Shown here in pieces: positions 5,588 to 39,916 of a stretch of 45,709 nucleotides of DNA. The position numbers and the translations under genes are program-made. Each line of letters opens with the position of its first letter. Position 1 is the stretch's first letter. The notes below the pieces were generated by a model. The model was not told where the DNA came from, searched no databases, and worked only from the letters and a program-made list of their open reading frames with translations. The DNA is from a virus, in IMG/VR virus record IMGVR_UViG_3300023184_000218, positions 1 through 45,709 of that record, one strand, 5' to 3'.

Positions 5588-8059
5588 TTATTCAAATTTT
5601 TCAGGCTCGGGATTCATTCCCCCCGTACTGATATTATATTTATATTCAGACTTTAAATTTCCTAAATTTAATGGGTTTTCTATAATGAAATCCCCGCTGG
5701 TATTAGGATATGCTTTACCTATGTCTCCTCTAGATTTTTTGTTAGCGTTCTCTATTTTTTGATAAACTGCATTTGGTTTAGTGGAAAATGTGTTTGAAGG
5801 ATCCCTGAGTTCACCATTCGAAGAAATCTTTTGAGTCTGTGCATAGACAGGTCCTGCTTCTATATTAGCCTGTGAAGCTGATTTCACTGGATCGGGATAA
5901 ACCTTCTGTTCTGGTAGAGACATTGGATTTTGATTAACCTGATAAACATCTTCCGATATTGTTGGATAAACCCTCTGTGGCACACCGAGTTCACTTCCAG
6001 GAACGTTGACATAAACATCTTCATTAGGATTTGTATAGACCCTATCGGGTACACCAAGATCAGTTCCAGGAACGTTGGAATATGAATCACCTCCTGGCGC
6101 TACATAAACTCTATCGGGGACTCCTAGATCCGGTCCAGGCGAGCTTGTGTACTCATCACCTCCTGGTGCTGGATAGACTCTATCAGGAACTCCTAAAGCA
6201 GTTCCTGGAACATCCGCGTAAGCGTCCCCGCCTGGAGCAGGATATATTCTCGACGGAACACCAAGATCAGTACCAGGTACATTAGCATAAACGTCGCTGC
6301 TAGGATCTGGATAAACCCTATCAGGAACTCCTAGATCAGGTCCAGGAACGGTAGCATAAACGTCACCATTAGGAACCGGATAGACTCTTCCGGGAACACC
6401 AAGATCTTTACCAGGAACTTCATTATAAACATCACCTGACGGGACATTATAAACTCTATCAGGTACACCTAAATCAGGTCCAGGTACGCTTGGGTATCTA
6501 TCACCTCCGGGTGGTGGATATACTCTTCCTTGGATTCCTGATACACTGCTAACTCCTAAATCCTGTCCTGGGACTTTAGCATAAACATCGCCAGAAGTTT
6601 TTTTATAGACCCTTTGTGGCGGTCCACCCAATCCAGTCGTTTGCGGATTAGGTAATTCTGTCTTTTTAAATCCTGCATTTACGTTTCCTAATTGATCAAG
6701 AAACTGCTGTGCACTATTGAAAGAAAGATTGCCTAATATTTGCGAAGGATTTAAACTATAGATATTACCTAAAGCTAATGAATCTAAACCTGCAACGTTA
6801 GGTTTTATAAAGCTCGCAACGCCTTCGTTAATAAGATCGTTTAGTGAATTGCTTAAAAAGTTAGTTAATAATTCACCGCCTAATGAAAGAATATCACTAC
6901 CCAAATTGCTAGGATTTCTTTGAACCGATGATCTGGCTCCGTCCCAGCTATCGCCAAGAACCATCGGTTTACCGTCTTGTCTGATATTCGGATATTGTGA
7001 TCTCATTCTAACCCTGCCCACTATGATTCTAAATTTCTGACCTACTGGTGTTGCTGTATCTGAACCTGCACTGATTTCGCTTGGTATTGCTGTGCTCTCG
7101 CTAAAATCAAATTCACAGTTTCTGCACTCAAAAACAATAACTGGTTTTATCCCGGTCTGATCCTGTTGATTTCTTAACATAGAAAAATCATTATCAACAC
7201 CAGCACCGTTTAAAACGTTTCCGACAAATGAATTAAATCCGCTTGCAGGATTTGTGTTTGAAGATCCCCCATTATATTCGCTATTTTGCTCACCAGCCAC
7301 ATCACCCAAATTTGTACCTGGATTATTACCAGATCCCAGCATTGATGTTAAATTGTCTATCGTAGTTAAAGCAGCGGACGATCCAATAAGTCTAGAAGTC
7401 TTAAAGAAATTACGAATCTCAGAAACGAAAATATACATTGTAAACTTTCTTAAGTTTCTGGGTATAAGCTCTCTCATATTATCATAGTCGAAAGTTGCCT
7501 GATTATATAGATCTGCAAGAGCAGTTATTCTCAAATTTAGCGACTCCAATGTGGTAAATTCTAAAGCCTTACCTGCAGTCCGCTGCGAATTAAACTCAGA
7601 TCCTGCCTCTGTTGCAAAGCCCTTTCTAGCAACAAGAGGTAATTGATCTAATCCAGATATCGATTGTATAAACCAAGGAGAATTATTAAGTAAATCGCTT
7701 AAACTATTTTTAAACTGAATTAGCATATCCGATCTTTTTCCTCCCCGCTGAAATTCAGCTTCTCTCTCCTGTAGATATGTTATCGCAGAATAAAAATTGA
7801 TTGCTCCATTAGGGGTAGTCCTGTATGAGTATTGGGGTTGTCCAAATGGATTGGATGAAGAGAATCCGCTGGGTATATAAGACGTTTCTTTAAAAAGAGG
7901 ACTAGGCGGAAGTCCATCGTCATCCCTTACTGGGAGTGCACCAAAATCTATCACTATTTTAAATCCAAGATATGTTGGATCCTCGTACTTTCCTTGTTTG
8001 GATAGCTTAAAGCCTTTTAAAAATAGACTTCTTAATTTATCTGTTGCTCCTAATGACAT
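5588..8059 (-). CDS. Baseplate/tail structural protein with ten 23-residue Pro/Gly-rich repeats
   Basis: 823 residues. Residues 1-380 include LESLNLRITALADLYNQATF, PRNLRKFTMYIFVSEIR and IVFECRNCEFDFSES, a pattern I associate with baseplate or tail-tube-initiator proteins of large myoviruses. Residues 483-718 consist of about ten copies of a 23-residue unit of the form RVYPxPGGDxYxxVPGxDLG followed by VPD. The C-terminus (after 730) is polar. The repeat could form an extended Pro-rich rod or a flexible linker with regularly spaced docking sites. A GATAAATA promoter-like element lies 19 bases upstream, and the next gene follows 2 bases after the stop. Structural assignment is good; exact role is inference. 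Confidence 0.75.
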   Translation of the reverse strand: MSLGATDKLRSLFLKGFKLSKQGKYEDPTYLGFKIVIDFGALPVRDDDGLPPSPLFKETSYIPSGFSSSNPFGQPQYSYRTTPNGAINFYSAITYLQEREAEFQRGGKRSDMLIQFKNSLSDLLNNSPWFIQSISGLDQLPLVARKGFATEAGSEFNSQRTAGKALEFTTLESLNLRITALADLYNQATFDYDNMRELIPRNLRKFTMYIFVSEIRNFFKTSRLIGSSAALTTIDNLTSMLGSGNNPGTNLGDVAGEQNSEYNGGSSNTNPASGFNSFVGNVLNGAGVDNDFSMLRNQQDQTGIKPVIVFECRNCEFDFSESTAIPSEISAGSDTATPVGQKFRIIVGRVRMRSQYPNIRQDGKPMVLGDSWDGARSSVQRNPSNLGSDILSLGGELLTNFLSNSLNDLINEGVASFIKPNVAGLDSLALGNIYSLNPSQILGNLSFNSAQQFLDQLGNVNAGFKKTELPNPQTTGLGGPPQRVYKKTSGDVYAKVPGQDLGVSSVSGIQGRVYPPPGGDRYPSVPGPDLGVPDRVYNVPSGDVYNEVPGKDLGVPGRVYPVPNGDVYATVPGPDLGVPDRVYPDPSSDVYANVPGTDLGVPSRIYPAPGGDAYADVPGTALGVPDRVYPAPGGDEYTSSPGPDLGVPDRVYVAPGGDSYSNVPGTDLGVPDRVYTNPNEDVYVNVPGSELGVPQRVYPTISEDVYQVNQNPMSLPEQKVYPDPVKSASQANIEAGPVYAQTQKISSNGELRDPSNTFSTKPNAVYQKIENANKKSRGDIGKAYPNTSGDFIIENPLNLGNLKSEYKYNISTGGMNPEPEKFE
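5906..6613 (-). repeat. Tandem 69-bp coding repeat (about ten 23-residue units)
   Basis: Within the 823-residue protein gene, units begin at Arg483 and repeat every 23 residues to about residue 718; the first is six residues longer. Conserved positions are R-V-Y at 1-3, D-x-Y near 9-11, V-P-G near 14-16 and L-G-V-P near 19-22. Units differ at many third-codon positions, so the repeat is kept by protein selection rather than being a recent DNA duplication. Confidence 0.9.
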
Positions 8060-17476: not shown

Positions 17477-18883
17477 CTATGCTTCCTCAAGGAAAAGATC
17501 CACCGCTTTTTGTCTATATTTAAGCTTATCTTCCTTTATTTCGGGATTCTTTAAAGCTTCTTTCTTTCTGTTTACTATAGAGTCAGGCAGCATAGGACCA
17601 AATGTGTCTTTTAGTATCTTTTTGTCGGTTCTCCATTCGATAGGGAGATGTAAGGCAAATCTAACTATATCCAGATTTAAGAAAGGGCTTCTTAACTCTA
17701 GTGTATGAGCCATTGACATTTTATCTAATCTAGGTAAATGATAATAAGGTAACTCATCAAAAACATCGGATTGCTGTGAATCGTATTCATGAATCCTAGA
17801 ATACCCGCCGAATAACTCATCCGATCCATCTCCACTTAGGACTATCCTATATCCAGATTCTCTCTTAACTGCCTCAAATAAATGATACTGGGGAACTACA
17901 GAGCCTAAATCCACTGGTGTTTCGTTCCATAGCGTGTATATAAGCGCATTCTTAGTTGAATCCATACCATAGTCTAGGAAATTAACAGGCGTGCTTAAAT
18001 GTGTGCTTAAATCGTTTACAAAAGGAGTTTCACCATTCTCTATGCTAAACCAGGTAACCTTGGCATTCATATGTTTTAATATCCCTGCTATTATTGAAGA
18101 ATCTAGTCCTCCTGATACCAAAAGTGATATTGGATAGTTCTTAGAAACAAGTCTATTAGATACACTTTCAAACATCTTATCCCATAGCCATTCCATGTGG
18201 GTTTCATAATCTGCATCCACCAGCTCTGCTATCGGGGATTCCCAAGTTCTATAATAAGGACCGTATGTTTGATCGAATAACGGAGATGTTATATTATAGA
18301 AATAGAAAGTGTTTGGCAAGATCCTTTTAATCGATTTAATCGGTGTTCGGTTATCCCTATTATAACCCCATTTTCTAATCGAGCTTATATAGGTTTCGTC
18401 CAATTCATCTAATGGTGCTCTTAGACCCTTTATCTCCGAACAGATCTCGCCAAGATCATTCTTATAAAGGCATTTCTTACCCAATGGGTCAGTGAATGCT
18501 ATCACGCTACCTTTATTAGAATCATAGATAACTACTGCCCAAAACCCATCCCATGTTTGTATATGCGGTGAATAAGCAGCGGCAAAGAATTCTAAACTTC
18601 CGCCTTTATATCCACCAAATAAGCTACAAAGGTATTCAGTATCAGATGAGAAATTACTTCTGTCATAATTAAAGATCTCCCCGTTAAACATTAAATAAAC
18701 GCCAGGAGAAATCTCCCTAGGCTGATTCCATTCGTCACCGTCCAATGTTTGAATAGGAAGCCTATGGTGGCATAGAGTAACCTTATCTAGTTCCTCTACG
18801 GATTTTTCGATTCCCCTGTGTTTTATTGTATCTAAAATTTCAGGATGCTTATCTGCTCTAGTTGTTAATAATATTCCGCACAT
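17477..18883 (-). CDS. Asparagine synthase-like glutamine amidotransferase (AsnB family)
   Basis: 468 residues with both domains of glutamine-hydrolysing asparagine synthetases. An N-terminal class II glutaminase starts directly with the nucleophile (MCGILL, Cys2) and has KHRGIE, CHHRLPIQTLDGDEWNQP and FNGEIFNYD. A C-terminal ATP-pyrophosphatase domain has the PP-loop SGGLDSSIIAG and VLSGDGSDELFGGYSR. E. coli AsnB has 554 residues, so this version is short. It would transfer ammonia from glutamine to an adenylated carboxylate: aspartate, or another acceptor in a modification pathway. It is 6 bases downstream of the P-loop kinase gene and they form a unit with a host-like promoter upstream. 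AsnB-like proteins are known in other phages; the acceptor here is unknown. Confidence 0.88.
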   Translation of the reverse strand: MCGILLTTRADKHPEILDTIKHRGIEKSVEELDKVTLCHHRLPIQTLDGDEWNQPREISPGVYLMFNGEIFNYDRSNFSSDTEYLCSLFGGYKGGSLEFFAAAYSPHIQTWDGFWAVVIYDSNKGSVIAFTDPLGKKCLYKNDLGEICSEIKGLRAPLDELDETYISSIRKWGYNRDNRTPIKSIKRILPNTFYFYNITSPLFDQTYGPYYRTWESPIAELVDADYETHMEWLWDKMFESVSNRLVSKNYPISLLVSGGLDSSIIAGILKHMNAKVTWFSIENGETPFVNDLSTHLSTPVNFLDYGMDSTKNALIYTLWNETPVDLGSVVPQYHLFEAVKRESGYRIVLSGDGSDELFGGYSRIHEYDSQQSDVFDELPYYHLPRLDKMSMAHTLELRSPFLNLDIVRFALHLPIEWRTDKKILKDTFGPMLPDSIVNRKKEALKNPEIKEDKLKYRQKAVDLFLEEA

Positions 18884-24478: not shown

Positions 24479-26197
24479 CTAGGTTAGCGAAAACTTATAG
24501 TTTCCACAATCCCATATCTTATAATAGCCCATTCCGTGCATTATGTTATCTACCGTATCGTCCTGGGAATATCCTTTTTCTACTAATTTCTTTTTAGTCC
24601 AATTTAATCTATTGGATCTTTTCCCGTCTATACACCAATAATATCCAGGATCTGTAATCTTAACTAGGGAAAACCCTGATTTATTATACGAGGTAGTTGT
24701 CCAATCAGGAGAGAATGATATATCGCAATATGTAACCAGTGAATTGCCGATGTTTTTTCTAAAATATGAAATAATTTTAGAAACCCCGCCTATCACTATA
24801 TTGCCTTTCTTTGTACAACTTCTTATTACCTCATATTCAAATTTAGTTTTACTTGATTCTATAAGTTTTCTAGTTTTAGAAAAACTCATTATTGACAATA
24901 ATTCATTCTCACTATATAAGCCTAATATTATACTAGCGGTAGAATAACCTTTTATGTGATTCTCAGTACAGAATTTTCTGTAATCCGATTGAGCTACATT
25001 AAGCACTGTACATTTTCTAGCATATGTTCTTTTAGTTGATATATTAAGGGTAGCAGAAATCATTGATTTAATGAGATCCTTTTTATAAGTCCAATCATCT
25101 TCCCATATATTGTATAGTTTAATGCCCTTAGATAATAGGTATTTGCTCTTTTCCTGGTGATATTCTTTAGTCTTATAAACTTCAGAATGCCAATATAGTC
25201 CATTAAATTCGAATGCAATCTTAGGCTCAGGTAAAAATATATCAGATTCTGAAAATTTAGAGGTTCCCCTAAATATTTCTCTATCATTTCTTTTTATATC
25301 TCCATCATATATGCTACTTATAAATTCGTGAAGTTCATCTTCCATTTTAGATCCTGCCATATTGGGAGGATTACATGAAGGACAGGGATTAATAGAATTT
25401 CTTAATTTATAGTTTATTGATACCGGGTGATTTGTGAATTCTTTATCACATACGGTACAAAGCAATTTGGATCTAATAGAATTATAAACTAATAGTTTTA
25501 TATTAAATTCATCTAGTTTTTCACCCAATTCATTTCGCTTTGTGGTGGAGGATGATGTTGCAACTTTCTCTGCAATATCTTTATTTTTCATTGCGTTAAT
25601 ATTACCATATTTAGCTTTATTAGTATTAGAAGCTTTTTCCCCCTGTATGAAATTTAAGCTTCCGTGTCTATCTATACATGTAGAGTTTCTTTTCTCTAGA
25701 ATTTCGCTATTTCTCAATGCATGCTCAGTACCATATTTTTCCAGCATTGTTGCTTTTATCGCAATTTTAGTATCTTCACATTTGAAATTATGATCTACAC
25801 CGTATTTGTTTAGCATGGTATTTTTGTATTTTTCTCTAGCAGAGGATCCTTCACCGAAGTAATTATTACCATATTTTTCATCTATAGTCTTTTTGAACGA
25901 TTCAACTTTCATTTTAGATCTACATTCTTTAACACCACAAGTTGGATGATAGCCATTAGAATATCTATAAAATATCCTGCTATTAATACAATATGGACAT
26001 TTAGCGATTTCTGTTACATTCTCTGTTAAATGCCAAAGTCTTCTTCCGATTTCGCATTCAGGTTCAAGATAGCTAGTTTTTTCTGTTATTTCTGATAGCA
26101 GACGTGAGTTATTTCTTATTATAGAGAAAATCCCATTAGCTGCAATCCCGTCTTTTTTACGTTTATTTAGTTCATTAATTATATCAGAAAGTATCAT
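24479..26197 (-). CDS. Homing endonuclease, Vsr-like nuclease fold with DNA-binding repeats
   Basis: 572 residues. A first zinc-finger-like region (CPYC at 67-70, HPTCGVKEC at 84-91) is followed by several short 'KYG' modules (EKYGNNYF, NKYGVDHNF, EKYGTEHA, AKYGNINA between 108 and 203), the arrays often seen in phage homing endonucleases. A second Cys pair set follows (CTVC 247-250, CPSC 272-275). The nuclease core has ESDIFLPEPKIAFEFNGLYW (317-336), with the Asp and Glu expected of the Vsr/very-short-patch fold, then LLSKGIKLYNIWEDDW. The C-terminal third is a further DNA-related domain. It has its own promoter and sits between the capsid operon and the internal-protein operon, typical of a mobile gene in a phage genome. 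Confidence 0.82.
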   Translation of the reverse strand: MILSDIINELNKRKKDGIAANGIFSIIRNNSRLLSEITEKTSYLEPECEIGRRLWHLTENVTEIAKCPYCINSRIFYRYSNGYHPTCGVKECRSKMKVESFKKTIDEKYGNNYFGEGSSAREKYKNTMLNKYGVDHNFKCEDTKIAIKATMLEKYGTEHALRNSEILEKRNSTCIDRHGSLNFIQGEKASNTNKAKYGNINAMKNKDIAEKVATSSSTTKRNELGEKLDEFNIKLLVYNSIRSKLLCTVCDKEFTNHPVSINYKLRNSINPCPSCNPPNMAGSKMEDELHEFISSIYDGDIKRNDREIFRGTSKFSESDIFLPEPKIAFEFNGLYWHSEVYKTKEYHQEKSKYLLSKGIKLYNIWEDDWTYKKDLIKSMISATLNISTKRTYARKCTVLNVAQSDYRKFCTENHIKGYSTASIILGLYSENELLSIMSFSKTRKLIESSKTKFEYEVIRSCTKKGNIVIGGVSKIISYFRKNIGNSLVTYCDISFSPDWTTTSYNKSGFSLVKITDPGYYWCIDGKRSNRLNWTKKKLVEKGYSQDDTVDNIMHGMGYYKIWDCGNYKFSLT

Positions 26198-26288: not shown

Positions 26289-28004
26289 TTAAGCTAAACC
26301 GCCAGCAGGTACTTGTACAAAGAATGTTAAGTACATAGTTTCTGGTAAGAAACCAGCTTCTACTAAAGCGTATCTTGATTTAACTGCTATTTTAGGTGAC
26401 ATCGTACCTTCAGAGATAGTTTGGATACTTTCAGCCATCATGTAAGGCATAAATTTAATACCTGGTTCGTCGTCTCCTCCTTTTCTACCGACACAAACTC
26501 TTGTGTCATTGTAGCTCATGTTTTGATCAACATATACAGTCATACCAGCAAGAGAACCTACAGGGTATAATGTACCGTTGTTTTGAGTTAAAGTATTAGA
26601 GAATGGTGCGAAAGTGAACTGAGAGATATCTTGAAGTGCACTTGCAACTGCAGCGTTTGTAATGATGAAGTTAGCAGGACCTCTTCTACCTCTATTAGCT
26701 ACCACGTTAGCAGCTGCAAGAAGTCTAGAGAATAATCTTCTTTGTAAAGTTGATAAGTTCTCATATCCTCCTGATGCAGGACCTGCAGGGATTGCCATAG
26801 TTTTAGCAGTATCGTCTTTCTGTACGTAAGCTAATGTAGTACCCTGAGTACCGCCGATAATTAAGTTTAAGTTAAGGTTTTGAGCTTCGACGTTCAAAAA
26901 TTGTTGGTGATTAGACCATCCTAAAGCAAATGCTCTTGAAAGGATGTGCTTGTTGATTGCTTGAGAAACCTCGTTAACTAATGCGTTCTCGATCATTGAA
27001 ATAACGTCGATACCGAATTGTTTGTTAAGATCTTGAATTTGCTCAGTTGTAACTGATGCAGCAACTTGGAAAGTTTCAGCCTCTACGAATTTAGTGAAAG
27101 TTGAAAGACCCATTGAGTTGAAGTAAGTAGACTCAGCAACACCTCTTAACATTGGGTTGTAAGTTTTAGTACCATCAACATAAGGACCTTGATAAGCGTC
27201 AGTGTTGTTGAAGCCAGCACCAGAGTAACCTTGAATGTGATCTTCTAAAGCTTTAACTAATTGTGCAGTACCAGCTGTTGCAGAAGTATAAAATCCTGAT
27301 CCAGCACTTGCAGTAACTACTTGTGCAGGAGTACCGTTGAAGTAAGAAGCAACGTTAGAACCTGATGCGATACCAGTGATTTGGAAAATAGGGAAACCAT
27401 CAATTCTAGATAAACCTACGAAAGTTAAAAGTAAAGTGTTGCTAATAGAAGCAGTACCACCTACTGTGAATGTACCAGCAGTAGCACCAGTAACACCTGT
27501 TCCAGTTGCTGATTGGAAAGTAGGGAATTTGATCATTGAAGGAGCAGTAGCTAACTGATCAGCAGCTGAAGTAGCAGTAGCAGCAGCAACTTTACCACCT
27601 GCGTATACGTAGTCTAAGTAAGACAAGATACCAGTTGGACCTGACATAGGGATAACAGGAACGATGTCAAAACCTACAGTCTTCGCAGCTACTTGAATAG
27701 CTAATGGAAGTAATGAAGGGAATTTATCGCCTGAACCTTGCCAAGTGTTGTTATAAAAACCAGCGTTTGCGCCAGTTGAATAAGCACTACCGGGATATGA
27801 AGCACCTGGGAATGCTGGAGGAGCTACTGTACCCATACCGTTTACTACGCCTAATGAGTTGTATGCACCTGCAGATTCGTTTAATGAATGGTAATGACAA
27901 TATTTAGTCAACCACGTTTTTTTGTTTTCGTCTGTGATACCAGCCTTGCTCTCAATAAGAGGTGACCAGGTTTCATAGATTTCTTGTTCGTTAATCAATT
28001 TCAT
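26289..28004 (-). CDS. Major capsid protein, T4 gp23-like
   Basis: 571 residues (T4 gp23: 521). Recognisable gp23 features are VTTEQIQDLNKQFGIDVISM, ENALVNEVSQAINKHIL, NVVANRGRRGPANFIITNAA, and a C-terminal FMPYMMAESIQTISEGTMSP followed by IAVKSRYALVEAGF. A likely prohead-protease site is S-L-N-E43 then SAGAY, so the mature chain would be about 528 residues; T4 gp23 is cleaved after residue 65 in the same way. Codons look less AT-biased than in neighbouring genes (many GTA/GCA/ACC-type choices), as expected for a highly made protein. It follows the protease-scaffold gene by 25 bases and is closed by a strong terminator. Confidence 0.93.
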   Translation of the reverse strand: MKLINEQEIYETWSPLIESKAGITDENKKTWLTKYCHYHSLNESAGAYNSLGVVNGMGTVAPPAFPGASYPGSAYSTGANAGFYNNTWQGSGDKFPSLLPLAIQVAAKTVGFDIVPVIPMSGPTGILSYLDYVYAGGKVAAATATSAADQLATAPSMIKFPTFQSATGTGVTGATAGTFTVGGTASISNTLLLTFVGLSRIDGFPIFQITGIASGSNVASYFNGTPAQVVTASAGSGFYTSATAGTAQLVKALEDHIQGYSGAGFNNTDAYQGPYVDGTKTYNPMLRGVAESTYFNSMGLSTFTKFVEAETFQVAASVTTEQIQDLNKQFGIDVISMIENALVNEVSQAINKHILSRAFALGWSNHQQFLNVEAQNLNLNLIIGGTQGTTLAYVQKDDTAKTMAIPAGPASGGYENLSTLQRRLFSRLLAAANVVANRGRRGPANFIITNAAVASALQDISQFTFAPFSNTLTQNNGTLYPVGSLAGMTVYVDQNMSYNDTRVCVGRKGGDDEPGIKFMPYMMAESIQTISEGTMSPKIAVKSRYALVEAGFLPETMYLTFFVQVPAGGLA

Positions 28005-28029: not shown

Positions 28030-29292
28030 TTATCTTTTTGGAAATTTTTGCTCGAGTGCAGAAGCTATATAATTCATATAATCTGAAGAATAAGCTTGCG
28101 GTTTTGCAGTCTCGGCTACATTTTCGCTCTCATCAAGTTTTTGTACTCCAACTAGTTTAGCTCCAAGCTGACGTGTTGACCAGAAATTTTTGATCTGATA
28201 AGCGGTATCTAAATTATAGAAGTTTGACTGAGCAACAATTGATTGCTGATGTCCTTCAGATAAAGATTCCCATACCTGAGCATATTCTGCTGGCATTTGG
28301 TCAATAAACTTAAGACCTGTTTTAGAGGTGTCATCTGACTCGTTAAGAACTGTTTCGTTAGCCTTTTGTGTTTCGGCTGGGGTTTTTACTGCTTTAGCAG
28401 CTTCGTTGATATTTGAAGCGGTTTTTTGTGTCTTAACCGATTCTATTAATGAATCAATCTGCGAAGTTAAGTTCTCATAGTTTCCAGCAAAGCCAGATTC
28501 GTTAAGTCCTGCTTCTGCAGAAAGATTTACATTTTCTTTTAATGATGTGGTATTCCCTGCAGGCAATTTACTAGCAATTGATTCTGCGATATACTCACTA
28601 TAAGCAATACCTTTATTTAATTTCTCTGCAAGGTATTCTGAATATTCTAATCCTTTATTTACATTCTCTGCTAAATAATCAGAATATTCGATATTTTTAT
28701 TTAGATTTTCTGCAATATACTCGGTGTATTCTATTCCGTTGTTTAATTTTTCTGCAACGTACTCAGAGTAAGCAATACCTTTATCTAAGTTTTCCCCTAA
28801 GTATTCAGAATAAGCAATACCTTTATCTACGTTTTCTGCTAAGTACTCAGAATATTGAATATTTTGATCCAATTTTTCTGCTAGGTATTTAGAATACTCG
28901 ATGTTCTTATCTACACTTTCGGCTACATACTCAGAATAGGAAATAGACTTATCAACATTCTCTGCTAAGTATTTTGCATAAGAAATATTTTTGTCTAAAT
29001 TTTCTGCTAGATATTTACTATAGCTAATAGTGCTATCTAAGTTTTCTGCAAGATACTCGCCATACTTAATGGAATTCTCTAAGTTCTCAGCTAAATACTC
29101 TGCGTATTTTTCAAGCTTAGCAACTCTTTCTTCAAGAGCCTCATTAGCCTTACTTAAATCTTCAGATTCAGTTAGCGATGTTTTTTGGGTTTTAGCATCT
29201 GCGATAGCTGTTCTCATCGAATCCATTTCTTTTTTCAAGAAGATGGAATACTGATTAAGCTCCTCCGCAGTAACAAATTCATTGTTCTCCAT
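28030..29292 (-). CDS. Possible nested start: scaffold-only product
   Basis: In-frame ATG at 29292 (MENNEFVTAEELNQY) lies right at the boundary between protease and scaffold parts. It is preceded by the A-rich stretch AATAAAAATAAATCAGTCCTT, like other starts here, and by a GATATATA motif 69 bases upstream. Initiation here would give a 420-residue scaffold without protease, as lambda Nu3 is made from within the C gene. This is inference and needs protein data. Confidence 0.4.
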   Translation of the reverse strand: MENNEFVTAEELNQYSIFLKKEMDSMRTAIADAKTQKTSLTESEDLSKANEALEERVAKLEKYAEYLAENLENSIKYGEYLAENLDSTISYSKYLAENLDKNISYAKYLAENVDKSISYSEYVAESVDKNIEYSKYLAEKLDQNIQYSEYLAENVDKGIAYSEYLGENLDKGIAYSEYVAEKLNNGIEYTEYIAENLNKNIEYSDYLAENVNKGLEYSEYLAEKLNKGIAYSEYIAESIASKLPAGNTTSLKENVNLSAEAGLNESGFAGNYENLTSQIDSLIESVKTQKTASNINEAAKAVKTPAETQKANETVLNESDDTSKTGLKFIDQMPAEYAQVWESLSEGHQQSIVAQSNFYNLDTAYQIKNFWSTRQLGAKLVGVQKLDESENVAETAKPQAYSSDYMNYIASALEQKFPKR

Positions 29293-29994
29293 AAGGACTG
29301 ATTTATTTTTATTGTCTGTTTTATTCACGATTTTATTGAATTCTTCGTTATTTTCAACTTTATATATCTTCAATGAAGATTCTTTTTCGATACCTAAAGA
29401 TTCATTTAAGCATTCTAATGTATTTAATATGCTATTATTCTTTATATCTTGAAATTGTTGAGATGAAAATCCTTCGCTTTCATAAACTCTTTCAAGTTGA
29501 GCATCCTTAAATCCAGGATCTGCTACTAGATCATAGGTAAAGATTTTCTTGATTGACACCTTCTTGTCGTTGCCAACAGATCCAGCTGCTCTTGAAGAAA
29601 TAGAAAGCGGAACACTAGCATCTACTAGGTTCTTAGCTATTCTACCCGCTGGGGTATCGAGAAGCTTAACCTTAATTTTAAGGTCTCTGTTACCTTTGTC
29701 ATAGTTGAGGTCTGTGATCATGTGAGAGATGTTCTTAAGCGATACATCAAATTTCTCTGGGTGATCCAATTCACCGACTAATCTATTCTGAGCTATCTTA
29801 TCTTTTAGATAATCTAGGTGAGGTAGATATTCGCTCTCTTCATAAATTCTATTGTTGTTGTTTTCTTTACCGAAAACAGCAGCAATACCTTCTAGAACAT
29901 AATCGTCTGAATTAGACCTTTTAGCTTCTAGAACGGAATTCTGTCTTTCGAGAATGAATACCATATTCTCGTTTATTGATTGTAGTTGGGGCAT
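28030..29994 (-). CDS. Fused prohead protease (gp21-like) and scaffolding protein
   Basis: 654 residues. Residues ~25-175 are a T4 gp21-type serine protease: RLVGELDHPE (His78), LKNISHMI (His91), VPLSISSRAAGSV (Ser in SISSR, 131-134) and IKKIFTYDLVADPGF. Residues 235-480 are a helical scaffold-like region with 13 units of a 14-residue repeat. The C-terminal 170 residues are polar, ending SALEQKFPKR. In T4 these are separate proteins gp21 and gp22. Many (L/I)-x-Glu sites occur (SINE9, CLNE198, GLNE499, NINE531, VLNE552, and most repeats), as expected for a substrate of its own protease. The capsid gene follows directly. Confidence 0.85.
   Translation of the reverse strand: MPQLQSINENMVFILERQNSVLEAKRSNSDDYVLEGIAAVFGKENNNNRIYEESEYLPHLDYLKDKIAQNRLVGELDHPEKFDVSLKNISHMITDLNYDKGNRDLKIKVKLLDTPAGRIAKNLVDASVPLSISSRAAGSVGNDKKVSIKKIFTYDLVADPGFKDAQLERVYESEGFSSQQFQDIKNNSILNTLECLNESLGIEKESSLKIYKVENNEEFNKIVNKTDNKNKSVLMENNEFVTAEELNQYSIFLKKEMDSMRTAIADAKTQKTSLTESEDLSKANEALEERVAKLEKYAEYLAENLENSIKYGEYLAENLDSTISYSKYLAENLDKNISYAKYLAENVDKSISYSEYVAESVDKNIEYSKYLAEKLDQNIQYSEYLAENVDKGIAYSEYLGENLDKGIAYSEYVAEKLNNGIEYTEYIAENLNKNIEYSDYLAENVNKGLEYSEYLAEKLNKGIAYSEYIAESIASKLPAGNTTSLKENVNLSAEAGLNESGFAGNYENLTSQIDSLIESVKTQKTASNINEAAKAVKTPAETQKANETVLNESDDTSKTGLKFIDQMPAEYAQVWESLSEGHQQSIVAQSNFYNLDTAYQIKNFWSTRQLGAKLVGVQKLDESENVAETAKPQAYSSDYMNYIASALEQKFPKR
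28579..29106 (-). repeat. Tandem 42-bp coding repeat (13 units of 14 residues) in the scaffold
   Basis: Residues 297-472 of the protease-scaffold repeat the pattern Y-S-x-Y-L-A-E-N-[LV]-[DN]-x-x-I-x; the last unit is partial. Eleven of the thirteen units carry an (L/I)-x-Glu site (LAE, IAE or LGE); two have VAE instead. Units differ in codon choice, so this is a long-standing protein repeat. Confidence 0.93.
29361..29368 (-). promoter_or_regulatory. Possible internal late promoter, GATATATA, inside the protease-scaffold gene
   Basis: The minus strand reads AAGATATATAAAGTTG within the coding sequence near residue 210, 69 bases before the in-frame ATG at 29292. It matches the octamer found before other late genes but could be a chance match. 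Confidence 0.35.
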
Positions 29995-38446: not shown

Positions 38447-39196
38447 TTAATCCGTTAGTTTCTGTATTTGAAACACTAATGATAATAAAGAAACCATCGG
38501 ATCAATCACTTGTGTTCTCTGAGACTGGTGATCGGCAACTAAAACAATAACTGCAGGGATTATCTTCTTTAATTCTGGTTTATTGTTAATTATCCAGTTT
38601 ATAAATTCCTCGCCAAGGGCTGACATAACTTCATCAACCTTACCCTGATATTCACCAACAATACTCTGATAATTTTTAACAGGATCTTTTGATGTTGTTA
38701 TGAGGGTGTACAAATCTTCGTATGACCATCCAAGCTCATTGATCTTTTCAGAGTCAACTTTCTTAACACCTTCAATCATCCAGGTCTGAACCTTGTTAAG
38801 TGCAGATCTAAAATCAGGATAATAATTTTTCTGAAACTCAACTAAAGATTCTGAATCAATTTCTATTCCTATTTTTCCTAGGATCAGTCCTATTCTCTTG
38901 TTCCATTCATTTTTCAATTCCTCTTCCTCTGAACTACTAACTGGGTTGAAATCAATAACTTCAAAACGACTTTGAATAGCATCAGGAATCTTATTTATAT
39001 AGTTGCACGTTGCTACAAATCTTGTATTTACTGCATATTTTTCAACCGTTCCTCTTAGAGCTTTATAGAATTGATCGGAAGCTCCGTCACAATTATGGGT
39101 AACTATACCATTTTCAGTTAAAAATGTATGATTTCTTAAAACCGTCAAATTTTTAACATTTCCCCTATTTATTTTTTCTATTTTTAAAACCTTCAT
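38447..39196 (-). CDS. Clamp loader large subunit (gp44-like), C-terminal half with split-intein C-fragment
   Basis: 249 residues. The first 35 (MKVLKIEKINRGNVKNLTVL, RNHTFLTENGIVTHN) are a split-intein C-fragment, ending in the His-Asn required for cyclisation; the next residue is Cys36 of the extein, as needed for splicing. From there the sequence continues the AAA+ clamp-loader fold: CDGASDQFYKALRGTVEKYA, FVATCNYINKIPDAIQSRF (sensor and arginine-type regions), then the C-terminal collar helices. Joined to the N-half it gives 100 + 214 = 314 residues; T4 gp44 has 319. The ATG overlaps the stop of a frame-shifted stretch (TAATG). Confidence 0.88.
   Translation of the reverse strand: MKVLKIEKINRGNVKNLTVLRNHTFLTENGIVTHNCDGASDQFYKALRGTVEKYAVNTRFVATCNYINKIPDAIQSRFEVIDFNPVSSSEEEELKNEWNKRIGLILGKIGIEIDSESLVEFQKNYYPDFRSALNKVQTWMIEGVKKVDSEKINELGWSYEDLYTLITTSKDPVKNYQSIVGEYQGKVDEVMSALGEEFINWIINNKPELKKIIPAVIVLVADHQSQRTQVIDPMVSLLSLVFQIQKLTD
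39092..39196 (-). other. Split-intein C-fragment (35 residues)
   Basis: Blocks F and G are visible: VKNLTVLRNHTFLTENGIV then THN. Penultimate His and terminal Asn are in place, followed by the +1 Cys. Length is close to the 36-residue C-fragment of Npu DnaE. Confidence 0.85.
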
Positions 39197-39304
39197 TAAT
39201 TTATTAATTTATATATTTTCTTTAATATTTCTTCATCTATCTTATAGTTATTTTTATTTATTTCTTTAAGAAATTCACTATATTTATAAAAGATCAAATT
39301 GGAA

Positions 39305-39916
39305 TTAAAAAATACAAACATCATCCATTTGATTGAGTCCTTCATTAATTGTTTTTTCTATAAAATTACCATTGGAGTCCTTTATCATAAATGGATGATC
39401 AACGGTTACCCTTATTTTTCTGCCATCCTCTAAAGTTACCTCGTATAGATCGTCTTCTTTCTCTGAAATAATGACGCAAATATCATTCTCTAGTTTACCT
39501 GTTTCAATATTCATAGAAATACAAGGATATTCTTTTCCCCATTCTAAATCTGATAATTTTACTCCTTTCCAATTATCCAAATTTCCTATTCTAACCATCT
39601 CTTCCTCTGATAGGCACTCATCGAGAACAACAACTTTTTTTGATGATTTGCCATCCATAACTGACACCGTCGAACAAAAATCGGTTATTTTAGTTCTAAT
39701 CGTTTCTACTGAGCTCTCGTCAGATACGTTTATGAATATGCTAGGATATCCAGTTGCTAATATTTTTGCAAGGGTCGTCTTGCCACACCCAGGAGGACCG
39801 CTTAGAAGAACATTATGTCCCAATCCGTTTTCGAATAACTTTGATATTCGAGACGGAAGTATCATATGTCTAAGCTCCTTTGGCCTAAGTTTTTCTGTTA
39901 ATAGTTCTTGTATCAT
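39305..39916 (-). CDS. Clamp loader large subunit (gp44-like), N-terminal half with split-intein N-fragment
   Basis: 203 residues. Residues 1-100 are the start of an AAA+ clamp loader: EKLRPKELRHMILP, Walker A LSGPPGCGKTTLAK, and Walker B KKVVVLDE. Immediately after LDE the intein begins with Cys101 (CLSEEEMVRI), followed by EWGKEYPCISMNIETGKLEN, and block B with the Thr-x-x-His motif (RVTVDHPFMIKD). It ends at residue 203 (MDDVCIF). So the intein sits exactly inside Walker B, where splicing is needed for ATPase activity. The N-fragment is 103 residues (Npu DnaE: 102). It starts 33 bases after the ligase gene. Confidence 0.88.
   Translation of the reverse strand: MIQELLTEKLRPKELRHMILPSRISKLFENGLGHNVLLSGPPGCGKTTLAKILATGYPSIFINVSDESSVETIRTKITDFCSTVSVMDGKSSKKVVVLDECLSEEEMVRIGNLDNWKGVKLSDLEWGKEYPCISMNIETGKLENDICVIISEKEDDLYEVTLEDGRKIRVTVDHPFMIKDSNGNFIEKTINEGLNQMDDVCIF
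39308..39616 (-). other. Split-intein N-fragment (103 residues)
   Basis: It begins with catalytic Cys1 directly after the extein residues LDE and contains the Thr-Val-Asp-His of block B. No endonuclease domain is present. The following frame stops after MDDVCIF. Confidence 0.85.

What the first reader, a model, noticed from the sequence alone, without database searches (positions are those of the whole stretch)
39092..39616. Clamp loader gene split by a trans-splicing intein at Walker B
The gp44-like subunit is encoded by two genes. The upstream one ends with a 103-residue intein N-fragment starting with Cys directly after VVVLDE; the downstream one begins with a 35-residue C-fragment ending THN, followed by Cys-Asp-Gly. 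Joining the exteins restores a continuous Walker B and a protein of 314 residues, close to T4 gp44. All splicing residues (Cys1, Thr-x-x-His, His-Asn, Cys+1) are present. Split inteins in phage genes are known (gp41, NrdJ and similar cases in metagenomes), but I do not know of one described in a phage clamp loader. The insertion site makes ATPase activity depend on splicing.
Basis: partly seen in the sequence, partly recalled or inferred. Interest (0 to 1): 0.85.

Follow-up and report, generated by a model that had tools for sequence, protein, structure and literature searches.

The report
Split intein in phage clamp loader
A giant phage makes the ATPase that loads its DNA-replication clamp as two separate proteins, each half useless alone, which very probably stitch themselves together by protein trans-splicing; a remnant of a deleted homing endonuclease gene lies between the two genes and suggests how the gene came to be broken.

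Summary
The gp44-like clamp-loader gene is two minus-strand ORFs: an extein plus a 103-aa intein N-fragment, then a 35-aa C-fragment plus extein. The spliced product would be 314 aa, exactly the length of the gene in close intein-less relatives and 92% identical to the nearest. Folded together, the halves give a complete intein fold (Z 20.7 to Ssp DnaB intein).

(i) A distant huge phage, LR756500.1, has the same split intein at the same site, with a 443-aa endonuclease-like ORF between the halves. In the window that ORF is reduced to a C-terminal fossil of about 31 residues (0 of 2000 shuffles match as well). (ii) The +1 residue is Cys only in these two phages; intein-less relatives have Phe, Val, Ile or Met, none able to splice. 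(iii) The inteins resemble each other more than the exteins do, and the two hosts lie far apart on the gp44 tree, so the intein probably moved horizontally.

It is a "fractured gene" split intein at what appears to be a new host gene and site, and it has lost its endonuclease. Splicing itself is inferred. Interest is moderate: a new member of a known kind with a clear evolutionary record.

The parts
39305..39916 (-). gp44 N gene (203 aa): N-extein (Walker A and Walker B up to VVVLDE) fused to intein N-fragment
   Evidence: phrog_168 clamp loader, 1.2e-24
39617..39916 (-). N-extein, 100 aa
39308..39616 (-). Intein N-fragment, 103 aa: Cys1, TVDH block B, block N4
   Evidence: PF14890; 57% identical to LR756500.1 IntN; predicted Hint fold
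39199..39288 (-). Fossil of the C-terminus of the homing endonuclease gene, reading frame +1 relative to IntN; its TAA overlaps the IntC start codon (TAATG)
   Evidence: Aligns to residues 409-440 of the 443-aa ORF in LR756500.1; 0 of 2000 dinucleotide shuffles score as high
38447..39196 (-). gp44 C gene (249 aa): intein C-fragment fused to C-extein (rest of AAA+ domain, lid, collar)
   Evidence: phrog_168, 1.9e-30
39092..39196 (-). Intein C-fragment, 35 aa: block F NLTVLRNHTF, block G GIVTHN (penultimate His, terminal Asn)
39089..39091 (-). Cys+1 codon (TGT), the splicing nucleophile; TTT/TTC (Phe) in most intein-less relatives
38450..39091 (-). C-extein, 214 aa

Best explanation
The gp44-like clamp-loader ATPase of this phage is a 'fractured gene' made whole by protein trans-splicing. 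SHOWN from sequence: two adjacent genes carry complementary halves of a class 1-type intein (Cys1, TxxH, His-Asn, Cys+1) inserted directly after the Walker B Asp-Glu. The same intein at the same site in LR756500.1 has an endonuclease-like gene between its halves. The window keeps only the tail of that gene. INFERRED: the two precursors are translated separately, the intein fragments associate and fold, an N-S acyl shift at Cys1, transesterification to Cys+1 and Asn cyclisation follow, and the ligated 314-aa gp44 with ...VVVLDE-CDGASD... is released. The element probably entered this lineage by endonuclease-driven homing into an intein-less gp44, bringing the Cys+1 codon with it, and later lost the endonuclease by deletion. 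The split persisted because only a precise deletion would restore an uninterrupted gene.
For: Motifs and Pfam. The IntN profile hits solved inteins (Pab PolII, DnaE, DnaB, gp41-1). The 175-aa read-through model has pLDDT about 90 over both halves and <50 only in the junk linker; it matches Ssp DnaB intein 1mi8 with Z 20.7, 1.6 A over 136 residues. Same split intein, same site, in LR756500.1 and its IMG/VR copy. Cys+1 is absent from all 157 motif matches in intein-less loci, which have F 130, V 16, I 9, M 2. Spliced length is 314 aa, as in close relatives. Empty sites are precise, with both flanks colinear at 81-84% DNA identity to L016 and L018. Endonuclease fossil, with differences concentrated at third codon positions (9/7/16). 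Intein identity 57% (IntN) and 71% (IntC) against extein 46%, and separate strongly supported gp44 clades. No group I intron or other Rfam match.
Against: No transcript, protein or mass-spectrometry evidence. Only two independent phage lineages carry this allele in the collections searched, so conservation statistics are thin. Block F lacks the Asp common in many inteins (NLTV here; from general knowledge). No Shine-Dalgarno precedes IntC, but only 2 of 29 genes checked in the window have one. The window is a fragment, so a second gp44 in this genome is not excluded.
Confidence: 0.93

Rival explanations
1. Genes-in-pieces without splicing: the two halves assemble non-covalently into a working clamp loader, as for Aeh1 NrdA and phage 25 gp43A/B, and the intein pieces are dead weight.
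For: Precedents of non-covalent split replication enzymes exist (PMC2988022).
Against: All splicing residues are intact. Cys+1 occurs only with the intein. The split falls right after Walker B DE in the ATPase core. Both halves pack into a complete Hint fold.
Confidence: 0.03
2. Decayed pseudogene: the intein insertion inactivated gp44 and another ATPase took over.
For: The endonuclease is a fossil, so decay has happened at this locus. The window is incomplete.
Against: Both ORFs are intact and extein identity to relatives is 92%. IntN and IntC differ from LR756500.1 mostly at third codon positions (31/26/49 and 8/7/13). Large relatives have one full gp44 only, next-best hits being remote AAA proteins.
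Confidence: 0.02
3. Contiguous cis-splicing intein broken by an assembly or sequencing frameshift.
For: The endonuclease-tail frame runs on from IntN by a one-base shift at a T6 run, so a single indel would extend IntN by 36 codons.
Against: IntN and IntC are in the same frame, with ten stops between them. The IntN stop lies at the homologous place in LR756500.1, and IntC has its own ATG in both. The extended frame still ends in TAA overlapping the IntC ATG, so the gene would stay split.
Confidence: 0.02

Closest known systems
'Fractured gene' split inteins with a homing endonuclease between the halves (Dassa et al. 2009, Nucleic Acids Res 37:2560; gp41-1, gp41-8, NrdJ-1, IMPDH-1)
   Same: Adjacent genes for IntN and IntC fusions, a very short C-fragment of about 35 aa, phage origin, and in the relative an endonuclease gene between the halves (comparison partly from general knowledge).
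   Different: Host gene (gp44 clamp loader) and site (after Walker B DE). In the window the endonuclease is deleted to a fossil. The paper itself could not be read here.
Pseudomonas jumbo phage MIJ3 PolB split intein with HNH endonuclease (PMC6892783)
   Same: Jumbo phage, replication gene, IntN - endonuclease - IntC.
   Different: DNA polymerase host gene and HNH endonuclease.
Archaeal RFC small-subunit inteins (PMC2814812)
   Same: Homologous AAA+ clamp-loader subunit; inserted at conserved sites.
   Different: The RFC sites are K51/T52, A76/S77 and S138/C139 in A. fulgidus RFC. The gp44 site corresponds to E110/A111, so it is a different site in a different branch, and the intein is split.
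Split inteins of DNA polymerase (L181) and RNA ligase (L182) in relatives of this phage, and of DNA polymerase, RNR and topoisomerase in LR756500.1
   Same: IntN - endonuclease - IntC in large T4-like phages.
   Different: Other host genes; the endonuclease is still present.

Membership tests
Split intein (Hint, class 1) | Hint fold formed by the two fragments together | tested here: met
   AlphaFold model of the read-through, Z 20.7 to 1mi8
Split intein (Hint, class 1) | Cys/Ser1, TxxH, terminal His-Asn, Cys/Ser/Thr +1 | tested here: met
Split intein (Hint, class 1) | Fragments encoded by separate genes with own stop and start | tested here: met
   the same arrangement in LR756500.1
Split intein (Hint, class 1) | Ligated extein product | not testable with these tools
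   needs expression
Fractured gene with endonuclease | Homing endonuclease gene between IntN and IntC | tested here: not met
   Only about 31 C-terminal residues remain in the window. Met in LR756500.1, where the ORF matches phrog_15427 endonuclease, 4e-26
T4 gp44-type clamp-loader subunit | Full-length profile match after joining exteins | tested here: met
   phrog_168 positions 8-109 and 109-308; an intein-less relative matches T4 gp44 structures 3u5z and 8unf
Group I intron | Intron RNA structure in the insertion | tested here: not met
   No Rfam match in the window

The most novel reading that the evidence does not exclude
The trans-splicing step has been co-opted as a control point. Clamp-loader ATPase, and so phage DNA replication, would start only when both halves have accumulated and spliced, and the retained endonuclease tail, whose stop overlaps the IntC start (TAATG), would set the amount of the C half by translational coupling.
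Probability: 0.06. Interest if true: 0.75.

Novelty: new member of a known kind. Interest (0 to 1): 0.5.

Why it matters
It adds the sliding-clamp loader, split at the ATPase's Walker B, to the essential phage enzymes that depend on trans-splicing. Three states of one site are visible: empty (many relatives), occupied with an endonuclease (LR756500.1), and occupied after endonuclease loss (window). This supports the homing cycle applied to a split intein, and the idea that a split intein outlives its endonuclease because it cannot easily be removed. The Phe-to-Cys change at +1 is a visible mark of the splicing chemistry in a host protein. The short IntC and Cys junctions make it a candidate tool for protein ligation.

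Tried and rejected
An IntN-only search in viral contigs with the window protein found nothing; the two-sequence profile found only the IMG/VR copy of LR756500.1. Neither that profile in 84,980 species genomes nor the THNCDGA DNA pattern in viral contigs (other hits unrelated) found another case. The LR756500.1 endonuclease protein finds only its own copy in viral contigs. The first fold, of the whole precursor with an extein-rich alignment, left the intein mostly below pLDDT 50 because the alignment gave it no usable relatives; it was repeated with an intein alignment. DNA-level similarity of the gap to the endonuclease gene is not significant (p 0.62); only the translated comparison is. Co-conversion beyond the +1 codon is not visible in local divergence. 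Considered and rejected: group I intron, frameshifted contiguous intein, non-covalent genes-in-pieces.

Full report
OBSERVATION. The window's minus strand carries two adjacent ORFs, 39305-39916 (203 aa) and 38447-39196 (249 aa). The first holds VVVLDE followed by Cys and 103 residues with TVDH; the second begins with 35 residues ending THN, then CDGASD. Both outer parts match the phage clamp-loader family phrog_168, positions 8-109 and 109-308, leaving no gap. Pfam's Intein_splicing model matches the N gene at 38.5 bits (cut-off 35.8) and both halves at 50.6 bits when stops are read through.

FOLD. Neither half alone is a full intein. I read the 175-residue stretch through its stops and aligned it with inteins of LR756500.1. 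AlphaFold gave pLDDT about 90 for both halves and below 50 only for the junk between them. The model matches Ssp DnaB intein (Z 20.7, 1.6 A over 136 residues), Npu DnaB, and the phage-like split inteins gp41-1 and NrdJ-1. The two fragments are therefore complementary halves of one Hint domain.

SAME INTEIN ELSEWHERE. LR756500.1, a 462-kb uncultured phage, has the same split intein at the same residue: IntN 57% and IntC 71% identical. Its near-identical IMG/VR copy is L163. Between its halves lies a 443-aa ORF whose C-terminal part matches phrog_15427 'endonuclease' (4e-26) and endonucleases next to T4-like terminase genes. IntN stops at the homologous place in both phages, and IntC has its own ATG in both, so the split is not a sequencing slip.

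THE GAP IS A FOSSIL. In the window only 108 nt separate the genes. In the frame +1 to IntN they read NSNLIFYKYSEFLKEINKNNYKIDEEILKKIYKLIN-stop, which aligns to residues 409-440 of the 443-aa ORF. No dinucleotide shuffle of the gap in 2000 scores as well against the ORF's last 45 residues, and only 1 of 2466 segments sampled from both strands of the window reaches the score. Differences fall mainly at third codon positions (9/7/16). DNA-level similarity alone is not significant. The TAA overlaps the IntC ATG, much as the intact endonuclease gene overlaps IntC in LR756500.1. I conclude that the endonuclease gene was deleted but for its tail.

EMPTY SITES AND THE +1 CYSTEINE. All fetched IMG/VR relatives other than the LR756500.1 copy have gp44 without an intein; it is 314 aa in the closest ones, equal to the spliced window protein, and the nearest is 92% identical. 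Both flanks of the site are colinear with L016 and L018 at 81-84% DNA identity, so the window is not a chimera there. In 157 intein-less matches the residue after LDE is Phe (130), Val (16), Ile (9) or Met (2), never Cys, Ser or Thr (some loci come from the same contig). Only the two intein-bearing phages have Cys. Since Cys+1 is needed for the splicing chemistry and evidently not by the ATPase, this is strong indirect evidence that splicing is, or was until recently, under selection. The codon change is TTT to TGT.

HISTORY. The two intein-bearing gp44s sit in separate strongly supported clades, each among intein-less sequences. Exteins are 46% identical, intein fragments 57 and 71%. This fits horizontal entry by homing better than shared inheritance, though two sequences cannot date it and loss in many lineages is not excluded. 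Relatives of this phage carry other intact examples: DNA polymerase (L181) and RNA ligase (L182), each as IntN - endonuclease - IntC.

MECHANISM. Shown: complementary halves, intact splicing residues, correct product length. Inferred: association, splicing, release of gp44 with the scar Cys. Neither half alone holds a complete ATPase: N has Walker A and B, C has the rest of the AAA+ domain, lid and collar (assignments from the family). In large relatives and LR756500.1 there is one full-strength gp44 each, the rest being remote AAA proteins, so loss would probably be lethal. Weak Shine-Dalgarno use in the window (2 of 29 genes) means its absence before IntC says nothing.

NOVELTY. Split inteins in fractured phage genes are known (Dassa et al. 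2009, not readable here; MIJ3 PolB, PMC6892783). Literature searches found no phage clamp-loader intein. Archaeal RFC inteins lie at three other sites (PMC2814812); here the site corresponds to E110/A111 of A. fulgidus RFC. I file it as a new member of a known kind, with an unusually complete record of the homing cycle.

Noticed in passing
24479-26197 (-): A 572-aa free-standing homing-endonuclease-like gene (DUF7487 domain) lies next to the major capsid-like gene 26289-28004. It resembles the endonuclease between the DNA polymerase split-intein halves of LR756500.1.
   Followed up: partly
L172, L173 and L174 (LR756500.1 247500-261500, 162500-167500, 275000-279500): LR756500.1 carries several more inteins: split ones in DNA polymerase, ribonucleotide reductase and topoisomerase-like genes, and a contiguous one with an HNH-like region in a ThyX-like gene.
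   Followed up: partly
L181, L182: Relatives of the window phage have split inteins with endonuclease genes in DNA polymerase (just after YGDTDS) and in an RNA ligase shortly before its EKLDG active site.
   Followed up: partly
window, minus-strand genes: Only 2 of 29 genes have a Shine-Dalgarno-like upstream motif, which suggests a host that does not rely on it, such as Bacteroidota.
   Followed up: no
28030-29994 (-) and 5588-8059 (-): Two proteins with many internal repeats: YSEYLAENVDK-type repeats in a head-protease-like gene, and VPGPDLGVPDRVYP-type repeats in a structural-looking gene (by eye).
   Followed up: no
17477-18883 (-): A 468-aa glutamine-dependent asparagine-synthase-like protein (by eye, not tested).
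   Followed up: no
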